Assembly: GCF_003144395.1 (NCBI RefSeq)
Contig: NZ_PENZ01000030.1
Span: 54,950 to 118,949 of the forward strand
Length of the DNA: 64,000 nt
Source: Proteus faecis
Lineage (GTDB): Bacteria; Pseudomonadota; Gammaproteobacteria; Enterobacterales; Enterobacteriaceae
Reading direction: 5' to 3'
Each line of letters begins with the position of its first letter. The stretch's first letter is position 1. The translations under genes and the position numbers were made by a program. Positions 1 to 10,823 of the stretch are shown piece by piece. The notes under the pieces were generated by a model. It saw only the letters and a program-made list of their open reading frames with translations, was not told where the DNA came from and ran no database searches.

Positions 1-48
1 GTGCAAATACTATAATTTGTGAAAAAAGTAAAAAAATTTATTTCTGGA

Positions 49-303
49 TTTTAAACAAAGTAACCAATCATGTTTGTTTTTTAAAATAATGATAAATATC
101 AATATGTTAATTAAATTAAGATATAAGGTTAATATTAAATTTGACTTAAGTGCGAAGCCAGAGAATAATAGTAAACAATTTGGTGTATTCTGTTTATTTC
201 TCTAAAGATGTCTGAATTCCTCTCTTTATTCATTTTTCACTTTTTCAATCAATAACTTTCATTTTCCAAAAATCAATAATCTTTCGATAAACTTGTTTAA
301 AAT
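49..303. promoter_or_regulatory. Putative mrp phase-switch invertible element
   Basis: An 11-bp perfect inverted repeat, ATTTTAAACAA at 49-59 and its reverse complement at 293-303, bounds a 255-bp segment just upstream of mrpI. From memory, the P. mirabilis mrp switch is about 252 bp with about 21-bp inverted repeats and lies between mrpI and the divergent mrpA, so position and size fit. Homology beyond the 11 bp is patchy, and in such AT-rich DNA an 11-bp match alone is not decisive. The mrp structural operon would lie left of the window. The element should be inverted by MrpI to switch fimbriae on and off. Confidence 0.5.
141..169 (+). promoter_or_regulatory. Sigma-70-like promoter inside the putative invertible element
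   Basis: TTGACT at 141-146 and AATAAT at 164-169 are separated by exactly 17 bp, a good sigma-70 promoter. It lies inside the putative switch and points right, toward mrpI and away from the presumed mrpA side. If this is the mrp operon promoter, the sequenced molecule is in the OFF orientation. No transcript data; inferred from spacing and consensus. Confidence 0.5.
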
Positions 304-422
304 GAACAAGTAAAAGTGAAAGCATAAAAAAAATATAACCCTTTATTGATGCATATTACTTGTTATAGTGATGCAACAATTGACTTTTGTTCCTTGTTAT
401 CTCATTGAAAAGGTTATGAAAA

Positions 423-983
423 ATGAAGCAACGCAAGTTTCTTACACGTTTTGAGATCAATTCTATTTTGAAACAAGCAAAGGAAGGACGGTATCCAGAA
501 AGAGATTACTGCATGTTTTTAATGTGTTTTTTACATGGATTTCGCGTTAGTGAACTATGTAGGTTAACCCTCAGCGATATTGATTTGGAAAGTCGGATAC
601 TCTATGTCAGACGTTTGAAAGGAGGGCTATCTACAACACAACCAATTATTGAAGATGAGTATGAAGCATTAGTTAACTGGTTGAAAAAACGGGAAACATG
701 GAGAGAAGCTGATTCTGAATGGGTGTTTTTATCTCAAAAAACAGGTCCAATCTCGCGCCAACAAGTTTATGGATTACTTCGCCGTTTAGGTAAAAAAGCT
801 AATGTATCTATTATTCCTCACCCTCATATGCTACGTCATGCATGTGGCTATGCCTTAGCTGATTTAGGACGAGATACGCGTCTAATCCAAGATTATTTAG
901 GACATCGTAATATTTCACATACTGTTATCTATACCGCAAGCAACTCAAAACGTTTTATTCACATTTGGGACGCAAGAAATTAA
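423..983 (+). CDS. mrpI: MrpI-like fimbrial tyrosine recombinase
   Basis: A small phage-integrase-type tyrosine recombinase of 186 aa, in the size class of FimB, FimE and MrpI. It lacks an arm-binding domain and consists essentially of the catalytic domain. The tetrad can be placed: R41 (in FRVSE), K66, H135-x-x-R138 (HMLRH), H161 and nucleophile Y170. The family inverts short promoter segments by cutting at inverted repeats, and a plausible target lies directly upstream. The sequence closely resembles what I recall of P. mirabilis MrpI, hence the symbol; another Proteus fimbrial recombinase remains possible. The ATG follows an A-rich stretch with only a weak ribosome binding site. Confidence 0.85.
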   Translation: MKQRKFLTRFEINSILKQAKEGRYPERDYCMFLMCFLHGFRVSELCRLTLSDIDLESRILYVRRLKGGLSTTQPIIEDEYEALVNWLKKRETWREADSEWVFLSQKTGPISRQQVYGLLRRLGKKANVSIIPHPHMLRHACGYALADLGRDTRLIQDYLGHRNISHTVIYTASNSKRFIHIWDARN

Positions 984-1416
984 CAATTATTTTTTTATTA
1001 ATATGTACAATGAGGATTAATACACTAAATAGAGTAAGCTATATTTTTTCAATAAGAATAAAGTTAATTTTAATATAATTAATAAAATTAGGAATTGTTT
1101 TATACTAAAATAAATAACTGCGATTGTAGATATTGATAGGTTATTAATAATTACTTTTCAATTATAGAATCACTTAATATAAGTATTCTTTTTTTGATTA
1201 TCTTTATTAGTCGAAAATGAGTTTAATATCAGTAATTATTTATTAATAATACTAAACATTTATTGTTTGAATTTTGAGCGAGAAATAAGGACTTAATTTA
1301 AAAGTAACTTTAATTCTTTAACTTATATTCATTTGCATACCATGCACACTCTTTCATATCTCACTATCCCCAACGTTATCGTTAGGGGATAGTTATGGAT
1401 TACCTTAAAAACACCA
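984..1416. other. Gene-free AT-rich spacer
   Basis: This 433-bp stretch between the convergent mrpI and rtcB is very AT-rich with frequent stops in all frames. The only structure I can support is the hairpin at 1364-1392. Confidence 0.7.
1364..1392 (-). terminator. Hairpin downstream of rtcB
   Basis: CTATCCCC pairs with GGGGATAG, extended by AACG/CGTT around a TTAT loop with one bulged A. It begins about 25 bp after the rtcB stop, a typical terminator position. No clear U-run follows on the minus strand, so it may act as an mRNA 3'-end stabiliser or a weak terminator. Confidence 0.55.
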
Positions 1417-2640
1417 TTATCCTTTTACACAAACAACCTGTCGTAGTGTATGAACTATCTCAACAAGCGATAACTGTGCCTTCATAACAGCATCAATATC
1501 CTTATAAGCCATTGGAATTTCATCAATCACATCTTCATCTTTTCGACATTCCACATGTGCAGTTGCTCGAATTTGGTCTTCAACATTAAAGGTTTTTTTC
1601 GCAGCTGTTCGGCTCATTACGCGTCCAGCGCCATGACTACATGAACAGAAACTGTCGGCATTTCCTTTTCCTCTCACAATAAAGCTTTTAGCCCCCATTG
1701 ACCCAGGAATTATCCCCATTTCACCTTTTTGAGCTGAAACAGCGCCTTTTCGAGTCACCAGCACTTCTTCACCAAAGTGCATTTCCTTTTGCACATAGTT
1801 ATGGTGGCAATTTACCGCCTGTTGTTGTGTTGTAAAAGGTTTCGCTATTTGTGTTGATAATGCCGCCAACACGTGTTCCATCATAATTTCACGGTTATGT
1901 CGGGCAAAATCCTGTGCCCACTCTACGGCTTCTATATAGTCATCATAGAAAAGAGTCCCTTCCTTTAAGTACGCTAAGTTTTTATCCGGTAAGTTAGCGA
2001 TATGTTCTCTCATATCTTCTTGTGCCATTTGTATAAATAGCGTACCAATAGCATTACCGACGCCACGAGAACCACTATGTAACATGACCCAAACATTATC
2101 AGATTCATCAAGGCACAACTCGATAAAATGGTTTCCTGTTCCTAATGTACCAAGGTGACAATAGTTATTCGTATTTCGTAAACGTGGGTACTTATCAGTT
2201 AAAATCTTAAAACGACCTTCAAGTTGTTGCCAATGTTGATCAACAAGTTTAGGTGGGTTCTTCCATGAACCACGATCATTTCCTGATTGATAACTTGTTC
2301 TTCCATGAGGTACAGCTCTTTCTATTGCCGTTCTTATGGCAAACAAATTATCTGGCAGATCATTTGCGTGTAATGATGTTTTCACCGCAATCATTCCACA
2401 TCCAATATCCACACCAACAGCAGCCGGAATAATCGCACCTTTTGTTGGAATAACACTCCCTATTGTTGAGCCTTTCCCTAAGTGAACATCAGGCATTACC
2501 GCCATATGTTTGAAAATAAAAGGCATCTTGGCAGTATTTATAAGTTGCTTTAGAGCATCTGCTTCAACGGGCACACCATTTGTCCACATTTTGATTTCAG
2601 CAGTTCCTGCTTCTTTTACTATTTGATGATCCAATATCAT
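1417..2640 (-). CDS. rtcB: RtcB, 3'-phosphate/5'-OH RNA ligase
   Basis: RtcB joins RNA ends bearing 2',3'-cyclic phosphate or 3'-phosphate to 5'-OH ends, using GTP and Mn2+. It repairs tRNAs or rRNA cut by ribotoxins. The 407-aa length matches E. coli RtcB (408). Visible family motifs include MPDVHLGKGSTIG, the metal-site segment GVDIGCGM, GTGNHFIE, HSGSRGVG, and the guanylylated His in SCSHGAGR (H336). The gene starts two bases after the slipin stop, so the two are surely cotranscribed and probably translationally coupled. Expression should depend on the sigma-54 promoter at 4155-4170 and RtcR. No rtcA cyclase follows, unlike the E. coli rtcBA operon: the next gene, mrpI, is convergent. Confidence 0.95.
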   Translation of the reverse strand: MILDHQIVKEAGTAEIKMWTNGVPVEADALKQLINTAKMPFIFKHMAVMPDVHLGKGSTIGSVIPTKGAIIPAAVGVDIGCGMIAVKTSLHANDLPDNLFAIRTAIERAVPHGRTSYQSGNDRGSWKNPPKLVDQHWQQLEGRFKILTDKYPRLRNTNNYCHLGTLGTGNHFIELCLDESDNVWVMLHSGSRGVGNAIGTLFIQMAQEDMREHIANLPDKNLAYLKEGTLFYDDYIEAVEWAQDFARHNREIMMEHVLAALSTQIAKPFTTQQQAVNCHHNYVQKEMHFGEEVLVTRKGAVSAQKGEMGIIPGSMGAKSFIVRGKGNADSFCSCSHGAGRVMSRTAAKKTFNVEDQIRATAHVECRKDEDVIDEIPMAYKDIDAVMKAQLSLVEIVHTLRQVVCVKG

Positions 2641-2642
2641 GC

Positions 2643-3782
2643 CTATGCTCCTTTAATTTGTACTAACCCGTTTAATACTTGGTCTAAACCACCATAAACG
2701 GAAATCTTATCAATACGTTCTGCAATTCGTTCTACGGTTTCTAGCTCTTTTAATCGTAAGGCTACTGGATTGTTTTCCATCACTTTTGCCGTATTTAATA
2801 AAGAGCGTGTCGCGGATGTCTCTTCTCTTCGACGAATAACATTAGCCTGAGCTGATTTTTCTGCCTCAACAACTTGCGCTAAAATCGTTTTCATTTCGCC
2901 TGGTAAAACAATATCTTTTACCCCTAATGAAGCCACTTCAATACCATATCCTTTAGTCATTTCACTGATTTTTTCACTCACTAAGCTGTCAATCAGGGTT
3001 TTATTTTCTAATAATTCATCCAATGTTCGTGTTCCTACGGCTTCACGTAACGCAAACTGCAACTCTTTATATAAGAACTCAATCGGTGAACTCAGTAATT
3101 GATACGCTGAAAGCACATCGCTATAACGCCAGTTTGCTGACAAATTAATGCGCAATGTCACTTTATCTTTCGTTAAGATCTCCTGACCACTCACATCAAG
3201 AGTTTGTAAACGCATATCAACAACCTCAACATCAACTTTGTGCTGATAACGCCAATAGCCTTTTAATCCAGGAGGCAATAGTGATTGAGTTTCACCATCA
3301 ATACGGATAATGCCAGCATGCCATGTCGGAATATCCACACTTAATACACCTTCACTGCCTTTGACAGTCTGGTTACGTAATTTTGGATGCTGCAATTTTT
3401 TAACCAAGGTTGGCGAAACTTCCAATTCATTCGCTGACAACACTTCCATTGAGCGTTGTGTATAATTCCAATAGAGACGACGGGTACTCGGCGCTAAGAT
3501 CTCTTTGAGTGAGCCATTTTCATAAAGTAAGCCAATCTCTTCATCAGATAACACAATATCAAAACAATATTCACGCACCCATTCTGGATGATATTGACGT
3601 AAAAATTCGGCTTTCTCTCTTTCAATTTCTGGACCGTTTAACTCCACCAGCTCAACACTTAATTGACGACGAAAATCGAAAAATTTATGCTCACCGGCTG
3701 TAAGGACTTCAATATACTCATCGTCCTTCTTTAATAAACCCAGCTGTCCTTGTTTTACTTTTATTGTTGTTTTTATCATCAT
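2643..3782 (-). CDS. Slipin (SPFH/band 7 family) of the RNA-repair operon
   Basis: A 379-aa protein with a stomatin/prohibitin-homology (SPFH) domain roughly at residues 155-330. The signs are the stretch VDVEVVDMRLQTLDVSGQEI, the segment GYGIEVASLGVKDIVLPGEM, and the Ala/Glu-rich helix EAEKSAQANVIRRREET typical of slipins. The N-terminal 150 residues look soluble, and I see no clear membrane anchor. Slipins usually scaffold membrane microdomains; their role beside RtcB is unknown. From memory, slipin genes recur next to rtcB in RtcR-controlled loci. A good Shine-Dalgarno (AAGGAAG) precedes the ATGATG start. It is the first gene after the structured leader at 3783-4146. Confidence 0.85.
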   Translation of the reverse strand: MMIKTTIKVKQGQLGLLKKDDEYIEVLTAGEHKFFDFRRQLSVELVELNGPEIEREKAEFLRQYHPEWVREYCFDIVLSDEEIGLLYENGSLKEILAPSTRRLYWNYTQRSMEVLSANELEVSPTLVKKLQHPKLRNQTVKGSEGVLSVDIPTWHAGIIRIDGETQSLLPPGLKGYWRYQHKVDVEVVDMRLQTLDVSGQEILTKDKVTLRINLSANWRYSDVLSAYQLLSSPIEFLYKELQFALREAVGTRTLDELLENKTLIDSLVSEKISEMTKGYGIEVASLGVKDIVLPGEMKTILAQVVEAEKSAQANVIRRREETSATRSLLNTAKVMENNPVALRLKELETVERIAERIDKISVYGGLDQVLNGLVQIKGA

Positions 3783-3839
3783 TGCTTCCTTTTTCTCTTC
3801 TTTATTTTTAGCTTTCTTTTATTACCATTTTTATCGTGA

Positions 3840-3953
3840 CTTGCTTTCCACGAACAAACTTGGCGAAATCGAAGGGAAAACAAGAGAGGAACGATACTTT
3901 GTTTGTCTCTTCTTCTGCCTCCAATCCAGCGTAGTTGCTGGTGGATAAGCAAG
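3840..3953 (-). ncRNA. Long-range stem domain, Y-RNA-like shape
   Basis: On the transcribed strand the 5' arm CTTGCTTATCCAC (3953-3941) pairs with the 3' arm GTGGAAAGCAAG (3851-3840): 12 bp with one bulged A. About 90 nt are enclosed, including a perfect CCAGC-AACTAC-GCTGG hairpin and an AAGAGA/TCTCTT helix. Outside it, TTGTGAC and GTCACGA can add a further stem. A closing stem that brings both ends together with internal hairpins resembles bacterial Y RNAs. No Ro/Rsr protein gene is present in the window, so the comparison is of shape only. Confidence 0.45.
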
Positions 3954-4011
3954 GTGACGGTACTGCTGTCACAACGATTTTTTATATTTAATTTTACATT
4001 TGGATTTGTAA

Positions 4012-4099
4012 TGGTTTTGGTGTCAGGAATCGAACCTGAAAATAACCCTCTTCACCTACAGAGTCCCGATGTGAAGGAACACATTTAGATAACACCACA
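4012..4099 (-). ncRNA. tRNA-like element in the RtcR-regulated leader
   Basis: An 88-nt segment on the minus strand ends in an encoded CCA (4014-4012). Its T-arm is canonical, TCAGG-TTCGATT-CCTGA (4039-4023). The 3' acceptor strand CACCAAA plus discriminator A pairs with a 5' strand TGTGGTG (4099-4093), six of seven bases. In place of D- and anticodon arms are hairpins ATGTG-TTCCTT-CACAT and CTCT-GTAGGTGA-AGAG. A normal D-arm (A box with AG...GG) is absent and no 7-nt anticodon loop forms, so it is not an ordinary tRNA. It could be a mimic recognised by RtcB, by RNase Z, by CCA-adding enzyme, or by RtcR. Confidence 0.6.
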
Positions 4100-4154
4100 G
4101 AGTGTTCTTTATGTGCCTACCAGATTTAAAATCTGCTCAAGACACTAATAATAT

Positions 4155-4170
4155 TGCGAAGATCGTGCCA
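4155..4170 (-). promoter_or_regulatory. Sigma-54 promoter of the slipin-rtcB operon
   Basis: The minus strand reads TGGCACGATCTTCGCA. The -24 element TGGCAC is perfect, and GG and GC are separated by exactly 10 nt. The -12 element TCGCA differs from TTGCA at one base. Divergent rtcR, an AAA+ sigma-54 activator, supports it. The predicted start is about 4144-4146, so the transcript begins with the structured leader. Confidence 0.88.
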
Positions 4171-4269
4171 AGTTTTTAAAACCCGCCCCAAAAAACTTTT
4201 AATTTATTGTTTTTATTGAAAATAATATCTTTAATATAAATTTTTACTATTTATACATTGAATTAAAAA

Positions 4270-4343
4270 AGATAAAAACTTATCTTTTTATCTATATATT
4301 TATAAATATAGATAAAATAAATAGAGATAAAATAAATAGAGAT
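4270..4343. promoter_or_regulatory. Candidate RtcR upstream activating sequences
   Basis: Between the sigma-54 promoter and rtcR lie inverted repeats AGATAA-N4-TTATCT (4270-4285) and ATCTATAT-N8-ATATAGAT (4290-4313). Two perfect tandem copies of a 15-bp unit ending in AGAGAT follow (4314-4328, 4329-4343). They are 100-190 bp upstream of the promoter, the usual distance for enhancer sites of sigma-54 activators, and abut the rtcR start, so they may also control rtcR itself. Confidence 0.5.
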
Positions 4344-4349
4344 AACGTA

Positions 4350-5942
4350 ATGAAACGCAAAGTGGTGATTGGTGTTTTAGGCACAACATTAGATAGACGA
4401 GGTAAAAGCCATAAAAGATGGAACTCATGGCGCCCAACAATTTCTATTTGCCATCAAAAAGATTTCCCTGTTAGTCGATTAATCATGATCCACCAGCCTA
4501 ATGATTCAATGTTAGCGTCAAAAACCATTGAAGATATTCATACCATTTCACCTGATACTGAGGTGTTACCTTACGAAATTGATATTCGCGATCCTTGGGA
4601 TCTCGAAGAGGTTTATAGTCACTTTCTTGATTTTGCAGTGAATTATCCATTTGATACCGAAAATGAAGAATATTATGTACATATCACCACAGGTACACAT
4701 ATCGCTCAGATTTGTTGGTTCCTACTGACTGAAGCACATTATTTACCGGCAAAACTATTACAAACCTCGCCTTCTTCTAAAATAGAAAATAAAGACGGCA
4801 TCAAAACAGTACAATCAGCCACGGGTAGTTATGCTGTTATTGATCTTGATTTAAGCCGTTATACCAAGCTAACGAGCCGATTTGAGCATTACCATAATGA
4901 ATCCCTCTCTTTTTTAAAATCAGGGATCGCCACACGTAATGAACGTTTTAATACTTTGATTGCTCAAATTGAACGTGTTGCATTGCGCTCCGTTGCTCCC
5001 ATTTTATTAACAGGCCCCACGGGTGCCGGTAAATCATTCCTTGCTCAGCGTATTTATGAATTACGGCAGTCTCGCCATTTTGTAAAAGGCCGTTTTATTG
5101 CTGTTAACTGCGCCACTTTACGAGGAGACAATGCGATGTCCACTTTATTTGGGCATGTAAAAGGTGCATTTACAGGGGCATTACAAGCCAGACAAGGCTT
5201 ATTAAGAGAAGCCGATAAAGGAATTTTATTTCTTGATGAAATTGCAGAATTAGGACTTGATGAGCAAGCCATGTTGCTTAAAGCGATAGAAGAGAAATCT
5301 TTTTATCCTTATGGTTCAGATACTGAGGTACAAAGTGATTTTCAGCTAATCGCAGGAACACATCGTGATATGGACAAGCAAATTGCAAAAGGACTTTTTC
5401 GTGAAGATCTTTATGCAAGGATCAACTTATGGTCTTTTTCACTACCTGGTTTAGCCGATCGTAAAGAGGATATTGAACCTAATATCGATTATGAATTGCA
5501 TCACTTTGCAAAATGCCATCAAAAGGCGATCCGTTTTAACTCTGATGCGAAATCACACTATATTCGATTTGCAACATCGGAACAGGCATTATGGCGTGGT
5601 AATTTCCGTGAACTTAGTGCTAGTATAACGCGAATGGCGACACTTGCCGAAAATGGTCGTATTACCCTTCCTCTGGTTGATGAAGAAATTAATCGTTTAA
5701 AACAAAATTGGGGAATAGCTTCCACCTCTTTATTTAAGAATACTGAGATTGATCTTTTCGATCTGAGTCAACTTAATACAGTGATCAAAACGTGCCAACA
5801 ATCATCAACTCTCTCAGAAGCCGGTAGAAAACTTTTCGCAGTATCAAGACAAAATAAAAAACAACCCAACGATGCCGATCGCCTACGTAAATATCTAGCA
5901 AAATTCGATTTAAGTTGGGAACAAATTCGACATGGAGAATAA
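4350..5942 (+). CDS. rtcR: RtcR, CARF-domain sigma-54 activator of RNA repair
   Basis: RtcR senses RNA damage and activates the sigma-54 promoter of rtc genes. This 530-aa protein (E. coli 532) has an N-terminal CARF/Rossmann sensor (about 1-180; start MKRKVVIGVLGTTLD and HITTGTH at 111-117). An AAA+ domain follows, with Walker A GPTGAGKS (222-229), the sigma-54-contacting GAFTGA (272-277) and Walker B GILFLDE (291-297). A C-terminal helix-turn-helix region lies near 490-527. As I recall, the Salmonella protein is activated by tRNA fragments bound through CARF. The gene diverges from slipin-rtcB and is followed nine bases later by RNase Z, an unusual partner. The start has only a weak ribosome binding site. 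Confidence 0.95.
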   Translation: MKRKVVIGVLGTTLDRRGKSHKRWNSWRPTISICHQKDFPVSRLIMIHQPNDSMLASKTIEDIHTISPDTEVLPYEIDIRDPWDLEEVYSHFLDFAVNYPFDTENEEYYVHITTGTHIAQICWFLLTEAHYLPAKLLQTSPSSKIENKDGIKTVQSATGSYAVIDLDLSRYTKLTSRFEHYHNESLSFLKSGIATRNERFNTLIAQIERVALRSVAPILLTGPTGAGKSFLAQRIYELRQSRHFVKGRFIAVNCATLRGDNAMSTLFGHVKGAFTGALQARQGLLREADKGILFLDEIAELGLDEQAMLLKAIEEKSFYPYGSDTEVQSDFQLIAGTHRDMDKQIAKGLFREDLYARINLWSFSLPGLADRKEDIEPNIDYELHHFAKCHQKAIRFNSDAKSHYIRFATSEQALWRGNFRELSASITRMATLAENGRITLPLVDEEINRLKQNWGIASTSLFKNTEIDLFDLSQLNTVIKTCQQSSTLSEAGRKLFAVSRQNKKQPNDADRLRKYLAKFDLSWEQIRHGE

Positions 5943-5951
5943 TATTTCATT

Positions 5952-6869
5952 ATGGAGCTCACTTTTTTAGGCACTAACGCCGGCGTTCCTTCTAAAGATC
6001 GCAATGTCACAAGCATGGTGCTTGATTTACAAAATAAACAAAAAAGCATGTGGATGTTTGATTGTGGTGAAGCAACACAACATCAAATATTGCATACCCG
6101 TGTGAAACTACCGCGTTTAAATAAAATATTTATTACCCATTTGCATGGCGATCATATTTTTGGTTTACCAGGATTGCTTTGTAGTCGCTCAATGGGAGGA
6201 ACAGAAACATGTTTAACGGTATATGGCCCTAGGGGTATAAAAGCCTTTATAGAAACAGCACTGACATTAAGCCAATCTTATTTAACTTACCCTATTAATA
6301 TTATTGAGATTGACGAAGCGGGTTTTCTGTTTGAAGAAGAAGGTATGAAAGTCAGCTGTGAAGTTCTTTCTCATCCCGTACCTTGTTTTGGTTATCGTTT
6401 AGAAGAAGAAAACCGTCTAGGTAAATTAGATGCCGAAAAACTGAAGGTTGACAATATTCCAGCGGGTCCTTGGCTACAAGACTTAAAACAAGGTAAAACA
6501 ATTAAATTGCCAGATGGCAGAGTTATTGACGGCAAAGAGTATATTGGTCCAGAAATAAAAGGTCGTTGTATTGCTATTTTTGGAGATACTCAACCCACAC
6601 CGAATGCATTAAAGCTGGCTAATAACGCAGATGTTATTGTTCATGAAGCGACGTTTAAACATGAAATGGCAGATCAAGCAAATAGTCGTGGACACTCAAC
6701 AACAGTACAAGCGGCACAGTTAGCAAAAGAGGCTAATAGCAAAAAGTTGATTATCACACATATTAGTAGTCGCTATTCACCCGAAGAGTGTGTTGAATTA
6801 CTCAATGAAAGCCAAGAAATCTTTAGCCAGACAGAAATGGCTACTGATTTTGAGGTATTTAAGTTGTAA
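5952..6869 (+). CDS. rnz: Ribonuclease Z / RNase BN
   Basis: A 305-aa metallo-beta-lactamase-fold tRNA 3'-processing nuclease, close to E. coli Rbn/ElaC in size. Metal ligands are visible: H63-x-H65-x-D67-H68 (THLHGDHIFG), the HPVPCFGYR segment, GDTQPT, and the late SRGHSTT and ITHIS motifs. It trims tRNA 3' trailers as an endo- or exonuclease before CCA addition. It begins nine bases after rtcR and is probably cotranscribed with it, placing a tRNA 3'-end enzyme under the same control as the repair sensor. That neighbourhood suggests it may act on broken tRNA ends or on the tRNA-like leader RNA; this is inference. Confidence 0.92.
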   Translation: MELTFLGTNAGVPSKDRNVTSMVLDLQNKQKSMWMFDCGEATQHQILHTRVKLPRLNKIFITHLHGDHIFGLPGLLCSRSMGGTETCLTVYGPRGIKAFIETALTLSQSYLTYPINIIEIDEAGFLFEEEGMKVSCEVLSHPVPCFGYRLEEENRLGKLDAEKLKVDNIPAGPWLQDLKQGKTIKLPDGRVIDGKEYIGPEIKGRCIAIFGDTQPTPNALKLANNADVIVHEATFKHEMADQANSRGHSTTVQAAQLAKEANSKKLIITHISSRYSPEECVELLNESQEIFSQTEMATDFEVFKL

Positions 6870-6890
6870 TTACGTCTTTATTAACTAGCA

Positions 6891-6914
6891 GTGGCGATAT
6901 TATTTCGCCATTGT
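6891..6914 (+). terminator. Hairpin after RNase Z
   Basis: TGGCGA and TCGCCA form a stem around a 7-nt loop about 20 bp after the stop codon. The following bases TTGTTATAAAT are only weakly U-rich, so termination is plausible but not strong. Confidence 0.5.
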
Positions 6915-6954
6915 TATAAATCACACTCCTCTCATTTACGCATATTTTAGTTAT

Positions 6955-7623
6955 TTATAACGTCGTCCGCTTAATCTTCCCATCTTGTAAAATAAAATTG
7001 ACCTTTCCATCCCAAAATTCAGCTAAGAAAATATCTTCCGGTTTATCAATATGCTGATTTTTCATCTCTTCTTGAAGCCACGCTTCATCTTTTTCTATTT
7101 GCGCTAATTCTGATGTGCGAATAACGCCCTCTTTCATGACAATAATTGAAGGCATTTTTGCACCATCACACACTACGGTGATTTGTCCATCTGGTTCAAT
7201 TTGCGCATAATTGACCTCTTGAAACGAATGAATACCCTGAGCATGAAGACGAGACGTTATGTTTAAAATGTCTATTTTATTCTTTTTCTCCATGATGTTT
7301 TCCATTATAAACTCCCCCTTCTTTATAATAGGAATAGGGTTACCAATGGTCACTGCACGGAAAAAGTTGAATCGTTTACTAATATAATTAAGCAAAGAGA
7401 TAAAACATACCCCAATTAAAAAGACGATAATATATTGATAAAGAGGAATTGCATCAGTGTAAATGACCCCTCCCATAATGCCACCGAGGACAAAATTACC
7501 AATAAAATCAATAGGTGTTAATTGAGAGAGTTGTGTTTTACCTGATAAATTCATATGAGCTAATATGATAGTAAAACCAATAATAAATTTGATAATAACC
7601 AGAAAGTAATATTCCATTTGCAT
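6955..7623 (-). CDS. YetF/DUF421-family membrane protein
   Basis: A 222-aa protein with an N-terminal membrane part (hydrophobic segments about 4-22, 38-56 and 64-82) and a C-terminal cytosolic domain of the DUF421/YetF type. The second part shows GNPIPIIKKGEF at about 113-124 and LHAQGIHSFQEVNYAQIEPDGQ further on, typical of the family. In Bacillus relatives these proteins are linked to spore membranes; in Gram-negatives the function is unknown. It is transcribed alone, convergent to RNase Z, with no clear operon partner. Confidence 0.75.
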   Translation of the reverse strand: MQMEYYFLVIIKFIIGFTIILAHMNLSGKTQLSQLTPIDFIGNFVLGGIMGGVIYTDAIPLYQYIIVFLIGVCFISLLNYISKRFNFFRAVTIGNPIPIIKKGEFIMENIMEKKNKIDILNITSRLHAQGIHSFQEVNYAQIEPDGQITVVCDGAKMPSIIVMKEGVIRTSELAQIEKDEAWLQEEMKNQHIDKPEDIFLAEFWDGKVNFILQDGKIKRTTL

Positions 7624-7881
7624 CTCACATTTCCAATAATCTCTGCTTTTATTATAAAGCAGAAAATCCCCCTCAGATAAAAATCTAAATTATTTTTGAT
7701 GATATTTGACTAAGAAAAAACACTTTATATACTTAGAATTGTTGATTTTAAGACTCACACTATACTTATTACTATGGTTTATCTGTAATATCTTATTATC
7801 AACTCAATAGCTTCTCGCCTTTTCTAGCTCTTACGCGGGATATCACTGAATTGTTTTTGAATACACATTTGGGAGAAAAAA

Positions 7882-8451
7882 ATGAATAAAAAACTACTTA
7901 CTTCATTGGTTCTAGCGGGTTTGGTCACTATTACAGCAGGTTGTGATGATTCATCTAAGAAAGTCGATGATAGCATTGATAAAGCAAAAGAAACTGCTAC
8001 TCAAGTTACTGAAACAGCGCAAGATAAAGCCAACGAATTAACAGAACAAGCCAAAGATAAAGCTGCCGACTTGAAAGAAGATGCGTCAGCAAAAGCAGAT
8101 GAATTAACAAAACAAGCTCAAGAGTTAAAAGATAAAGCTGAACAAAAAGCGGCTGAGCTAAAAGATGTAAGTGCAGCAAAAGCTGAAGAAATTAAGCAAA
8201 GCCTAGAAGCTGAAAGTAATAAATTATCTGAAAAAGCCGCAGAGCTAAAACAAGATGCAAGCAAAACAGCAGATAACCTGATGCAAGAAGCAGACAACAA
8301 GATTGATCAGCTAAAAGGCGACGCGTCAAAAACTAGCGATGATGTAAAACAACAGGCTCAAGAGACTGAAAATAAAGCAATTGATAAAGCGGATCAATTA
8401 ACTGATCAAGCCAAACAAAAAATTGATGATTTAAAAACTGAAAACAAATAA
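7882..8451 (+). CDS. Coiled-coil lipoprotein with short Lys/Ala/Asp repeats
   Basis: A 189-aa protein with a lipoprotein signal: Lys-rich start, hydrophobic core, lipobox ITAGC and lipidated C21. Residues +2 and +3 are Asp-Asp, the classical Lol-avoidance signal for keeping a lipoprotein in the inner membrane. The rest (about 25-189) is one long amphipathic helix of degenerate 11-residue units rich in K, A, D, E and Q (for example AKDKAADLKEDASAKADEL), resembling LEA or apolipoprotein helices. No enzymatic domain. I do not recognise a named gene; an envelope stress or spacer role is a guess. Good Shine-Dalgarno (GGGAGA) and its own terminator: a single-gene unit. Confidence 0.8.
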   Translation: MNKKLLTSLVLAGLVTITAGCDDSSKKVDDSIDKAKETATQVTETAQDKANELTEQAKDKAADLKEDASAKADELTKQAQELKDKAEQKAAELKDVSAAKAEEIKQSLEAESNKLSEKAAELKQDASKTADNLMQEADNKIDQLKGDASKTSDDVKQQAQETENKAIDKADQLTDQAKQKIDDLKTENK

Positions 8452-8480
8452 TCCGATTTCAGTTTTTTTGATGAATTGAG

Positions 8481-8508
8481 AGCCAGTAAACTTTCACTGG
8501 CTTTTTTT
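8481..8508 (+). terminator. Rho-independent terminator of the lipoprotein gene
   Basis: AGCCAGT-8 nt-ACTGGCT stem followed by seven Ts, 30 bp after the stop codon. Confidence 0.9.
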
Positions 8509-8816
8509 GTACAAAAAAAAGACAAGGGTTGATCGTTTAAGCAAAAAATGTAACCATGTTCTCCTTTTTTCAACAGGAGAAACCTATTAAAGAGCGAAAG
8601 CATCTAGAATATAAAGTTATTAATAAATTGATTTAATTGTACTTTTCTTCATCTTGCGGAAAAAATAATTTACTTCCGTTCTTTTATAAAACATTTGTCC
8701 AATTTGGTGTTTTATTCAAATTTTCTTATGAACTTTTCTTTTCTGGTAACATAAGCAATCAGATAATGGGTAGCGAAAAGTCTCTTTCTAAGAAAATAAC
8801 TATAAATAGGTTAACT
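8509..8816. other. Spacer upstream of the BCCT transporter
   Basis: About 310 bp. The reading frame of the transporter stays open here back to 8637, but the translation looks random and lacks a ribosome binding site. Probably promoter and leader for the transporter gene. Confidence 0.5.
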
Positions 8817-10823
8817 ATGAGTCAACAAAACGATATAACCCCTCAAAAAAAAGTTAGGATGAAAATTAATCCTCCCGTTTTTTATACATCAGCGTTGTTA
8901 ATTTTACTGGTCGTTGGTTTCTCGGCGTTATTTCCTGAGTTAGCTAATGATAAATTAGGTCATCTTCAGGAAAATCTCTTCAGAAATGCGAGCTGGTTTT
9001 ACATTCTAGCCGTTGCATTGGTTTTGCTGAGTGTGACTTATTTAGGACTTTCCCGCTTTGGTCAAATCAAGTTAGGGCCAGATCATGCTCGCCCTCACTT
9101 TAGTTATTTTGCTTGGTTTGCCATGCTCTTTTCAGCAGGTATGGGGATTGGCTTAATGTTCTTTGGTGTTGCCGAACCTGTTATGCATTACCTAATGCCT
9201 CCGACTGGTGAAGCTCAAACCATAGAAGCCGCGAAAGAAGCGATGCGATTAACCTTTTTCCACTGGGGATTACATGCATGGGCAATTTACGCCATTGTCG
9301 CGTTGATCTTAGCTTTCTTCTCTTATCGCCATGGTTTACCGTTAACACTGCGCTCGGCACTTTATCCAATTATTGGTGATCGCATACATGGCCCGATTGG
9401 TCATGCGGTTGATATTTTCGCCGTTATGGGAACCGTATTTGGTGTCGCAACCTCACTTGGATTTGGTGTTCTGCAAGTTAATGCGGGTTTAAATCACCTC
9501 TTTAATGTACCGATTAATCCAACCATTCAAGTAATCTTAATTGTTGTGATCACAGGACTTGCAACCATTTCAGTTGTTTCTGGGTTAGAGAAAGGGATCC
9601 GCTTTTTATCTGAACTTAATTTAGGATTGGCGGTTATTCTTCTTTTATTAGTTATTACTCTCGGTCCAACCGTATTGATATTAAAATCATTTGTTGAAAA
9701 TACGGGGGGATATCTATCCGAAATTGTCAGTAAAACTTTTAATCTTTACGCATATGAACCCAAATCGAGTGATTGGTTAGGGGGATGGACTCTACTTTAT
9801 TGGGGGTGGTGGCTTTCATGGTCCCCATTTGTAGGGATGTTTATTGCCCGCATTTCTCGAGGCCGTACTATTCGTGAATTTGTTGTAGGTGTCCTGTTTG
9901 TTCCTGCTGGCTTCACTTTACTTTGGATGACCGTTTTTGGTAACACTGCGATCCATTTAATCAAAGATAAAGGTGCAGAAGCTCTTGCCAATATCGTACA
10001 GCAAGATGTGTCATTGGCTTTATTTGAGTTCTTAAATTATTTTCCATTCTCGACTGTTTTATCCTTCGTTGCGATGTTGATGGTAGTCGTCTTCTTTGTG
10101 ACTTCAGCAGACTCAGGCGCAATGGTTGTTGATACTTTAGCTTCTGGCGGTGATAGCGAAACCCCCGTATGGCAACGTATTTTCTGGGCTGCCTTAATGG
10201 GCATTTCTGCAATTACTTTATTATTAGCGGGTGGTTTAACTGCACTACAAACAGTAACTATTGCAAGTGCACTTCCCTTCTCAATGGTATTACTTGCTTC
10301 TATTTATGGACTAATTAAAGCATTACGAGTTGATGTATATAAACGTGATAGCCAACAACTAACGACAATTGCACCACCAGCCAGTCGCAATCCAATTCCT
10401 TGGCAACGTCGTTTAAGAAATATTGCCTATTTTCCTAAACGCTCTCATGTAAAACGTTTTATGGATGAAGTCATTCAACCCTCAATGGAAATGGTGTCTG
10501 CCGAATTAAGTAAGCAAGCAACGCAATGCATTATCCATAATGAAGAAGATGATCGAATTGGTTTTGAAGTCGATTTAGGCGATGACATGAATTTCTTCTA
10601 TGAAGTTCGCCTGCGTTTTTATACTCAACCGGCCTTTGCGTTAGCAGGATTAAGTGATGAAGAAAGAGACGAAGAGCATAAATATTACCGTGCTGAAATT
10701 CACTTAAAAGAAGGTGGGCAAGATTATGATGTAATGGGTTGGACGAAAGAACAAATCATTCACGATATTCTTGATCAGTACGAAAAACACATTCACTTCT
10801 TACACGTATTAGGTAAGCAATAA
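8817..10823 (+). CDS. BCCT-family transporter, BetT-like
   Basis: A 668-aa secondary transporter of the betaine/choline/carnitine family with 12 predicted membrane helices. Signature segments are the glycine-rich GMGIGLMFFGVAEP and the Trp-rich WWLSWSPFVGMFIARISRGR. A C-terminal cytosolic tail of about 150 residues, as in E. coli BetT (677 aa), may sense osmotic state. Choline or another quaternary amine is the likely substrate, with H+ or Na+ coupling. No betA, betB or betI genes adjoin, so uptake is not tied to local glycine betaine synthesis. I start at ATG 8817, preceded by AGG at good spacing, rather than the longer open frame from 8637. Confidence 0.88.
   Translation: MSQQNDITPQKKVRMKINPPVFYTSALLILLVVGFSALFPELANDKLGHLQENLFRNASWFYILAVALVLLSVTYLGLSRFGQIKLGPDHARPHFSYFAWFAMLFSAGMGIGLMFFGVAEPVMHYLMPPTGEAQTIEAAKEAMRLTFFHWGLHAWAIYAIVALILAFFSYRHGLPLTLRSALYPIIGDRIHGPIGHAVDIFAVMGTVFGVATSLGFGVLQVNAGLNHLFNVPINPTIQVILIVVITGLATISVVSGLEKGIRFLSELNLGLAVILLLLVITLGPTVLILKSFVENTGGYLSEIVSKTFNLYAYEPKSSDWLGGWTLLYWGWWLSWSPFVGMFIARISRGRTIREFVVGVLFVPAGFTLLWMTVFGNTAIHLIKDKGAEALANIVQQDVSLALFEFLNYFPFSTVLSFVAMLMVVVFFVTSADSGAMVVDTLASGGDSETPVWQRIFWAALMGISAITLLLAGGLTALQTVTIASALPFSMVLLASIYGLIKALRVDVYKRDSQQLTTIAPPASRNPIPWQRRLRNIAYFPKRSHVKRFMDEVIQPSMEMVSAELSKQATQCIIHNEEDDRIGFEVDLGDDMNFFYEVRLRFYTQPAFALAGLSDEERDEEHKYYRAEIHLKEGGQDYDVMGWTKEQIIHDILDQYEKHIHFLHVLGKQ

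What the first reader, a model, noticed from the sequence alone, without database searches (positions are those of the whole stretch)
4012..4099. tRNA-like RNA encoded in the sigma-54/RtcR-controlled leader of an rtcB operon
The minus strand between the sigma-54 promoter and slipin encodes a perfect T-arm (TTCGATT loop), an acceptor-like stem with six of seven pairs, a discriminator A and a templated CCA. Two non-canonical hairpins replace the D and anticodon arms. Seen directly in sequence. RtcR in Salmonella is known to respond to tRNA fragments, and its RNA-repair operon carries Y RNAs with tRNA-like modules. Here a tRNA mimic is made only when repair is induced. It could be a substrate, decoy or feedback ligand for RtcR, RtcB or RNase Z.
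Basis: partly seen in the sequence, partly recalled or inferred. Interest (0 to 1): 0.85.

Follow-up and report, generated by a model that had tools for sequence, protein, structure and literature searches.

The report
tRNA-mimic RNA paired with slipin
Upstream of an RNA-repair gene cluster, this bacterium encodes a structured RNA that imitates part of a transfer RNA, and relatives of that RNA travel with the same slipin protein in distant bacterial groups, which points to an undescribed RNA partner of RNA-repair machinery.

Summary
A perfect T-arm and a templated ACCA lie in the sigma-54 leader of rtcR/slipin-rtcB. The proposed acceptor strand fails in the most diverged congener; another strand (4053-4058) pairs instead. 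Single-sequence folding gives no support. A covariance model built without this genus finds the window at E 1.1e-7, its only match in the genome.

The element follows slipin. Among 108 RtcR loci a T-arm lies upstream of slipin in 59 of 60 slipin loci; of 34 loci with neither slipin nor rsr, 2 have one, one of them inside coding sequence. Rsr loci carry Y RNAs instead. In 80 slipin loci from other phyla, 69 of the 76 with enough upstream sequence have it, all on the slipin strand; no rtcR was found in the fetched pieces. A model of the non-tRNA core from those loci recovers 9 of 32 Pseudomonadota leaders and 0 of 30 controls, though not the window. Rfam has only 'tRNA' there.

Best guess: RNA scaffold of a slipin-based repair particle. 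Main rival: cis-regulatory leader. Expression untested.

The parts
4155..4170 (-). sigma-54-type -24/-12 promoter TGGCACGATCTTCGCA; transcript predicted to start near 4144-4146
   Evidence: sequence; TGGCAC..GC at the same place in leaders of relatives
4140..4143 (-). P1, 5' strand (GTCT), thought to close the upstream module with 4063-4066
   Evidence: by eye: GTC/GAC in most relatives; not part of model R1; G-U at one pair in the window
4121..4135 (-). P2 hairpin CAGAT-TTTAA-ATCTG
   Evidence: fold; in L016/L165 (one genome) the loop changes and the stem is kept; covarying helix in relatives of other genera
4077..4107 (-). P3 hairpin GAACAC...GTGTTC with internal GTTATC
   Evidence: sequence; aligned with the third helix of relatives, which covaries there
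4063..4066 (-). P1, 3' strand (GGAC)
   Evidence: by eye
4012..4058 (-). tRNA-like minihelix: acceptor 5' strand 4058-4053, linker AAGAGGGTTATTT 4052-4040, T-arm 4039-4023, acceptor 3' strand 4022-4017, ACCA ending at 4012
   Evidence: linker resembles AAGTCGGTT of L016 and of relatives; model R1
3800..4011 (-). 3' part of the leader, conserved in the genus, function unknown
   Evidence: 12 of 16 rows (the other 4 I gave in the wrong orientation)
2643..3782 (-). slipin: SPFH/Band_7 protein of 379 aa with extra N-terminal beta modules
   Evidence: Pfam Band_7 E 1.5e-26; model and fold search
1417..2640 (-). rtcB RNA ligase
   Evidence: Pfam RtcB E 4.7e-130
4350..5942 (+). rtcR, divergent sigma-54 activator
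   Evidence: ORF; name from annotated homologues

Best explanation
Shown by computation: the leader encodes a conserved structured RNA with a 5' module and a tRNA-like module, followed by a conserved 3' part. The tRNA-like module is a T-arm/acceptor minihelix here, one to three cloverleafs in some other Pseudomonadota, and in other phyla mostly a T-arm followed by a hairpin-closed acceptor. Such RNAs are tied to one long-form slipin subfamily across phyla. Inferred: the RNA is the noncoding partner of that slipin, as Y RNA is the partner of Ro60/Rsr in the sister type of operon. It would be made when the operon is induced, here by RtcR after tRNA damage, and its tRNA elbow would bring tRNA-acting enzymes (RtcB, the operon nucleotidyltransferase, possibly PNPase or modification enzymes) or damaged tRNAs to a slipin ring.
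For: Linkage: T-arm upstream of slipin in 50 of 51 slipin-first loci and 9 of 9 loci with slipin further down; 3 of 57 other leaders (relaxed pattern, set after I had read the leaders). Strict pattern, set before: 37 of 51 against 2 of 57. Shuffled leaders give 0.14 of 51 (strict) or 0.8 of 51 (relaxed). Other phyla: 69 of 76 on the slipin strand, 0 of 76 on the other; 2 of the 7 misses have it about 1 kb upstream. 9 generic slipins: none. Structure: covariation score 0.298 against 0.093 or less for slid versions, and 0.618 against 0.137 or less. Acceptor hairpin of 5 or more pairs after the T-arm in 64 of 82 T-arms of other phyla, 9.2 in shuffles. Core: model R2, from 33 loci of other phyla, hits 9 of 32 Pseudomonadota slipin loci and 0 of 30 controls, and 27 of 47 slipin loci left out of it and 0 of 9 generic ones. 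Rsr loci: Rfam YrlA in 7 of 14, so an RNA beside a ring-protein gene recurs. In L178 and L179 a same-strand ORF of 215-227 aa separates RNA and slipin, which argues against a simple slipin 5' UTR.
Against: No binding, expression or processing data. The RNA is almost always directly 5' of slipin, and no second copy was seen (18 matches in 198 genomes, 17 of them beside rtcR, one weak; strict filters that lose weak matches), which fits a cis element equally well. One slipin operon (L148) lacks the T-arm, and 5 of 76 loci elsewhere show none, although L243 among these keeps the core. R2 does not detect the window or three family relatives at E up to 1, and misses 23 of 32 other Pseudomonadota slipin loci, so the window joins the cross-phylum family through R1, synteny and order of modules only. 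R1 scores the cloverleaf-type loci at E 0.013 to 0.8, a range in which one slipin-less control also scores (L136, E 0.48). Some conserved letters of R2's training set were required by the pattern that chose it.
Confidence: 0.45

Rival explanations
1. Cis-regulatory leader: the structured 5' region with its tRNA mimic controls translation or stability of the slipin-rtcB mRNA, for example as an operator bound by slipin, RtcB or a tRNA-binding protein, sensing tRNA damage by competition.
For: Almost always immediately upstream and on the same strand; no second copies seen. Some relatives can pair the acceptor 3' strand either upstream or in a downstream hairpin (L131, L132, L139; hairpins of 6 or more in 11 of 64 Pseudomonadota T-arms, 1.6 in shuffles), as a switch would.
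Against: Large multi-module RNA with up to three tRNA units; an ORF lies between RNA and slipin in L178 and L179. Sequestration of the slipin ribosome-binding site was not examined.
Confidence: 0.3
2. Decoy or feedback ligand: the tRNA mimic absorbs tRNA-cleaving toxins, or is cut to give or mask the RtcR ligand.
For: RtcR CARF binds 5' tRNA fragments with cyclic phosphate, and a competitive-inhibitor role was suggested for YrlA (PMC7790460, passages). Some relatives have full cloverleafs with anticodon loops.
Against: No anticodon arm in this genus and its family relatives. 69 of 76 loci of other phyla carry the RNA and none of the fetched pieces shows rtcR. Fragments of YrlA were not detected in the Salmonella work (PMC7790460, passages).
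Confidence: 0.12
3. RNA-processing signal: the T-arm/acceptor minihelix is an RNase P or RNase Z site that trims the mRNA.
For: Minihelix of acceptor and T-arm with templated CCA in this genus; minihelix recognition by these enzymes is recalled, not tested.
Against: CCA and open acceptor ends are not kept in relatives; a processing site does not explain the covarying core modules.
Confidence: 0.08
4. A degenerate tRNA gene or chance match in a leader.
For: Not called by ARAGORN or Rfam; folding no better than shuffles.
Against: Model, covariation, linkage and strand bias.
Confidence: 0.02

Closest known systems
Bacterial Y RNAs (YrlA, Rfam RF02553) with Rsr/Ro60
   Same: tRNA-mimic RNA encoded inside RtcR/RtcB operons next to a ring-protein gene; in other phyla the slipin RNA has the order T-arm, closed acceptor hairpin and, in some, D-arm, which is also how the Rsr-locus elements read by eye.
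   Different: Partner gene is slipin, not rsr; lies upstream rather than downstream of it; no Rfam YrlA match in the window or in 36 slipin loci, while 7 of 14 Rsr loci match; different core; many members are cloverleafs or a bare minihelix.
Anabaena trn operon, rtcB and slipin under TrcR
   Same: rtcB, a slipin-family gene and a tRNA operon are under one repressor (PMC10272220, passages); some RtcR operons here carry tRNA arrays.
   Different: There the genes are at separate places with tRNA genes; here a tRNA-like module is built into a structured RNA upstream of slipin.
Vault particle (major vault protein and vault RNA)
   Same: Slipin model matches MVP over residues 147-346 (VIA Z 12.0, rmsd 3.5, 193 aligned; Foldseek E 1.1e-11).
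   Different: Stomatin SPFH domains score higher (Z 17.0); the N-terminal part alone matches only SPFH-type modules weakly (erlin2 Z 6.2, 44 aligned). No RNA homology tested.
tmRNA
   Same: tRNA-like domain embedded in a larger structured RNA (recalled).
   Different: ARAGORN finds no tmRNA in the window or in 38 leaders of relatives.

Membership tests
Bacterial Y RNA (YrlA) | Match to the Rfam YrlA covariance model | tested here: not met
   No YrlA hit in window 1-10000 at E up to 10, nor at gathering score in 16 + 20 slipin loci; positive control: 7 of 14 Rsr loci match
Bacterial Y RNA (YrlA) | Encoded next to an rsr/Ro60 gene | tested here: not met
   No Rsr cluster member beside slipin in the 60 slipin loci or the window stretch by blastp clustering
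Bacterial Y RNA (YrlA) | tRNA-like domain with T and D arms | tested here: inconclusive
   T-arm present; no D-arm in the window; D-arm-like segments in several relatives
Bacterial Y RNA (YrlA) | Binds Ro60 and PNPase | not testable with these tools
   needs biochemistry
Canonical tRNA gene | Full cloverleaf called by ARAGORN or Rfam tRNA | tested here: not met
   Not called in the window element; called in several relatives
Canonical tRNA gene | Seven-pair acceptor stem | tested here: not met
   Best-supported acceptor is a six-position helix with one mismatch
Slipin-linked tRNA-like RNA (proposed here) | T-arm module upstream of a long-form slipin on its strand | tested here: met
Slipin-linked tRNA-like RNA (proposed here) | Match to a covariance model of relatives | tested here: met
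   R1 (other genera only) 34.1 bits, E 1.1e-7
Slipin-linked tRNA-like RNA (proposed here) | Cross-phylum core (model R2) | tested here: not met
   R2 does not hit the window or L056, L127, L151 at E up to 1, while it hits 9 of 32 other Pseudomonadota slipin loci; so the window is a diverged member at best
MVP-like protein (slipin) | Shared fold beyond the SPFH domain | tested here: inconclusive

The most novel reading that the evidence does not exclude
A cross-phylum bacterial ribonucleoprotein in which a vault-like slipin shell is organised by a tRNA-mimic RNA, working as the Rsr-independent counterpart of the Ro60/Y-RNA machine in tRNA-damage repair, with the RNA existing in open and hairpin-closed acceptor forms.
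Probability: 0.2. Interest if true: 0.95.

Novelty: new variant of a known kind. Interest (0 to 1): 0.84.

Why it matters
RNA-repair operons were known to carry Ro60 with Y RNA in some bacteria. This suggests that another accessory, slipin, also comes with its own tRNA-mimic RNA, in Bacillota as well as Pseudomonadota. It gives slipin, whose role in these operons I found described nowhere in the held papers, a testable RNA partner. The leader is present in 1627 of 5426 complete E. coli genomes, so it can be studied there. It also adds an RNA class that Rfam labels 'tRNA' or not at all in the loci scanned.

Tried and rejected
Single-sequence folding did not support the element. YrlA search of 40 relatives: over the cut-off in one (G022); the weak G000 matches that were listed lie at other places, but the list was cut. 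In one search I gave 4 of 16 rows in the wrong orientation, so I use only the other 12 by eye. N-terminal slipin fold: no Foldseek match at E 0.001 or better. Slipin-MVP kinship stays suggestive.

Literature: nine searches and passages of PMC7790460, PMC9879122, PMC10272220, PMC8394870, PMC13086221, PMC7824862 and PMC8619066 gave no description of a tRNA-like RNA upstream of slipin. That holds for this open-licence library only. Chen 2014 (PMC4201824) and PMC5062991, which I believe from memory is Burroughs and Aravind 2016, are not held, so earlier mention there cannot be excluded.

Rows left out: of the rtcR places found, six were not fetched (G108, two further copies in G385, G014, G1124, G1305). 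3 of 111 loci had no recognised operon gene (L063, L103, L157). Alignment A8 used 33 of 44 core matches: 9 were left out by hand and L181 and L218 when one search was made. Alignment A2 left out L130, L134, L147 and L150; A3 left out these and also WIN, L165, L128, L129 and L141.

Full report
What is in the window. On the minus strand a sigma-54-type promoter (4170-4155) is followed by about 360 nt of leader, then slipin and rtcB; rtcR diverges. By DNA comparison the leader was found in 16 of 40 genomes searched, the window's own among them, all of one genus; 4 of the 20 genus members gave no match. ARAGORN and Rfam do not call the element and single-sequence folding is unremarkable (z 0.01; z -1.83 for a longer stretch).

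The fold. The alternative, strand 4058-4053 with 4022-4017, is perfect in L016 (TCAGTG/CACTGA against TAGGTG/CACCAA: one pair changed on both sides, one mismatch turned into a pair); in the other 14 rows it does not vary. The linker beside it in L016, AAGTCGGTT, is also the linker in several relatives of other genera, where the same place holds GCGAA/TTCGC, GGCGAA/TTCGTC or GCAAA/TTTGC. So the window has a minimal tRNA top half: acceptor, linker, T-arm, without D or anticodon arm. The hairpins upstream (4121-4135, 4077-4107) belong to a separate module. In 19 sequences from other genera this module and the T-arm show 12 of 25 pairs with changes on both sides and a covariation score of 0.298, against at most 0.093 when partners are slid; the structure was derived from the same alignment.

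Is it more than chance? Model R1 from those 19 sequences finds the window at 34.1 bits, E 1.1e-7 in 64 kb, and finds E. coli (81.6 bits) and Citrobacter (115.3 bits) leaders that were not in it. In 198 genomes of the family it gives 18 matches at E 0.01: 17 lie beside an rtcR (10 of these supplied training rows), one is weak (21 bits) in a 0.5-Mb genome; no genome has two. The ten best were fetched and each has slipin-like sequence on the other side of the RNA.

What it is linked to. I collected 111 RtcR loci including the window; 108 have a recognised operon gene. With a strict T-arm pattern, 37 of 51 slipin-first leaders have one, against 1 of 36 rtcB-first, 1 of 14 rsr-first, 0 of 6 nucleotidyltransferase-first and 0 of 1 rtcA-first. 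I then read the leaders without a strict match and set a relaxed pattern: in a fixed 550 nt it is 50 of 51 against 3 of 57, 1 of 51 on the other strand, and 0.8 of 51 in shuffles (strict pattern in the same stretch 39 of 51, 2 of 57, 0.14). In all 9 loci where slipin comes after rtcB the element sits in the 500 nt before slipin. Rsr loci have T-arms downstream of rsr in 13 of 14, and 7 of the 14 loci match Rfam's YrlA. Of 34 loci with neither gene, 2 have a T-arm, one of them inside coding sequence.

Beyond RtcR. A slipin alignment headed by a Subdoligranulum protein returned 80 named loci, the nearest of 575 relatives: mostly Bacillota by their titles, two Spirochaetes, one Synergistaceae and one labelled Bacteroides. 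Of 76 with at least 400 nt upstream, 69 have a T-arm on the slipin strand and none on the other. No rtcR-like match was found in the 80 pieces and rtcB in 30 of them; many pieces end at contig ends. Of the 7 without, L178 and L179 have the RNA about 1 kb upstream behind a same-strand ORF, and L243 keeps the core without a T-arm. Nine generic, shorter slipins have none; six further long slipins (two of them the same E. coli sequence, one the seed of the scan) all do.

Core across phyla. The 5' module of 33 loci from other phyla has a covarying hairpin followed by GGUGC...GUAUGCC, score 0.618 against at most 0.137 when slid. The rows were chosen with a pattern that asks for these letters, so their conservation is partly by choice; the first hairpin and the inner helix were not asked for. 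Model R2 from these finds 9 of 32 Pseudomonadota slipin loci, in the leader (best E 4.9e-8), and 0 of 30 slipin-less controls; it finds neither the window nor three family relatives at E up to 1. On loci left out of it, it finds 27 of 47 slipin loci and 0 of 9 generic ones. The tRNA module itself varies: cloverleafs, up to three in a row; a minihelix in the window's relatives; and elsewhere a T-arm running into a hairpin-closed acceptor. That hairpin (5 or more pairs) follows 64 of 82 T-arms of other phyla against 9.2 in shuffles, while an upstream partner is no commoner than in shuffles (42 against 38.9). In Pseudomonadota the upstream partner is enriched (6 or more pairs in 29 of 64 against 9.6), the downstream hairpin less so (11 against 1.6). 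Rfam 15 sees only tRNA in the leaders of 16 Pseudomonadota loci, and in 20 other loci no family at the slipin leader; its tRNA hits there lie elsewhere or on the other strand.

The protein. Slipin is an SPFH/Band_7 protein. The model (mean pLDDT 81.6) shows beta modules before the SPFH domain and a long helix. Best matches are stomatin SPFH domains (Z 17.0), with major vault protein further down (Z 12.0, rmsd 3.5, 193 aligned). The first 145 residues alone give only weak SPFH-module matches (Z 6.2). MVP kinship is therefore suggestive.

Reading. Shown: a conserved structured RNA with a tRNA-like module, and T-arm RNAs tied to long-form slipins across phyla. Inferred: it is slipin's RNA partner, with a scaffold role like that of YrlA, which links Rsr and PNPase (PMC8394870, passages). 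The cis-regulatory reading is the strongest rival, because the RNA nearly always lies directly upstream of slipin. RtcR-specific decoy or ligand roles are weakened by the many loci without rtcR and by the missing anticodon arm.

Limits. No expression, binding or processing data. The loci are related by descent, so the counts are not independent trials, but slipin loci with the element come from several family labels. The window's place in the cross-phylum family rests on R1, synteny and module order, not on R2. Earlier mention in papers not held cannot be excluded.

Noticed in passing
L077 (operon coordinates 5268-7047), L079 (4998-7561), L124 (3644-4812): RtcR-rtcB-rtcA-slipin operons that carry arrays of tRNA genes called by ARAGORN on the same strand: 12 after slipin in L077, 9 in L079, 4 between rtcA and slipin in L124. 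This looks like tRNA resupply under RtcR control.
   Followed up: partly
L261 3916-7331 (E. coli): In E. coli the leader, slipin and a nucleotidyltransferase gene sit between yjbD and lysC without rtcR or rtcB beside them and with a zeta toxin family gene next door; the leader carries no annotation.
   Followed up: partly
L131, L132, L139 leaders: The acceptor 3' strand can pair either with the upstream strand (5 pairs) or with a downstream strand (6-7 pairs), a possible switch or an evolutionary step between open and hairpin-closed forms.
   Followed up: partly
L118 about 240-315 after rtcR; L095 and L164 leaders: A tRNA-like unit in an rtcB-first leader without slipin (L118), and T-arm matches upstream of rsr (L095, L164): exceptions to the linkage.
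   Followed up: no
L178 and L179, between RNA core and slipin: An ORF of 215-227 aa lies between the RNA and slipin; not identified.
   Followed up: no
window 5952-6869 +: ORF next to rtcR that looks like an RNase Z/BN-type hydrolase (recognised by eye, not searched).
   Followed up: no
window 3954-3972 +: Terminator-like hairpin with a T run on the plus strand inside the leader, opposite to the RNA (0.3 expected in shuffles).
   Followed up: no
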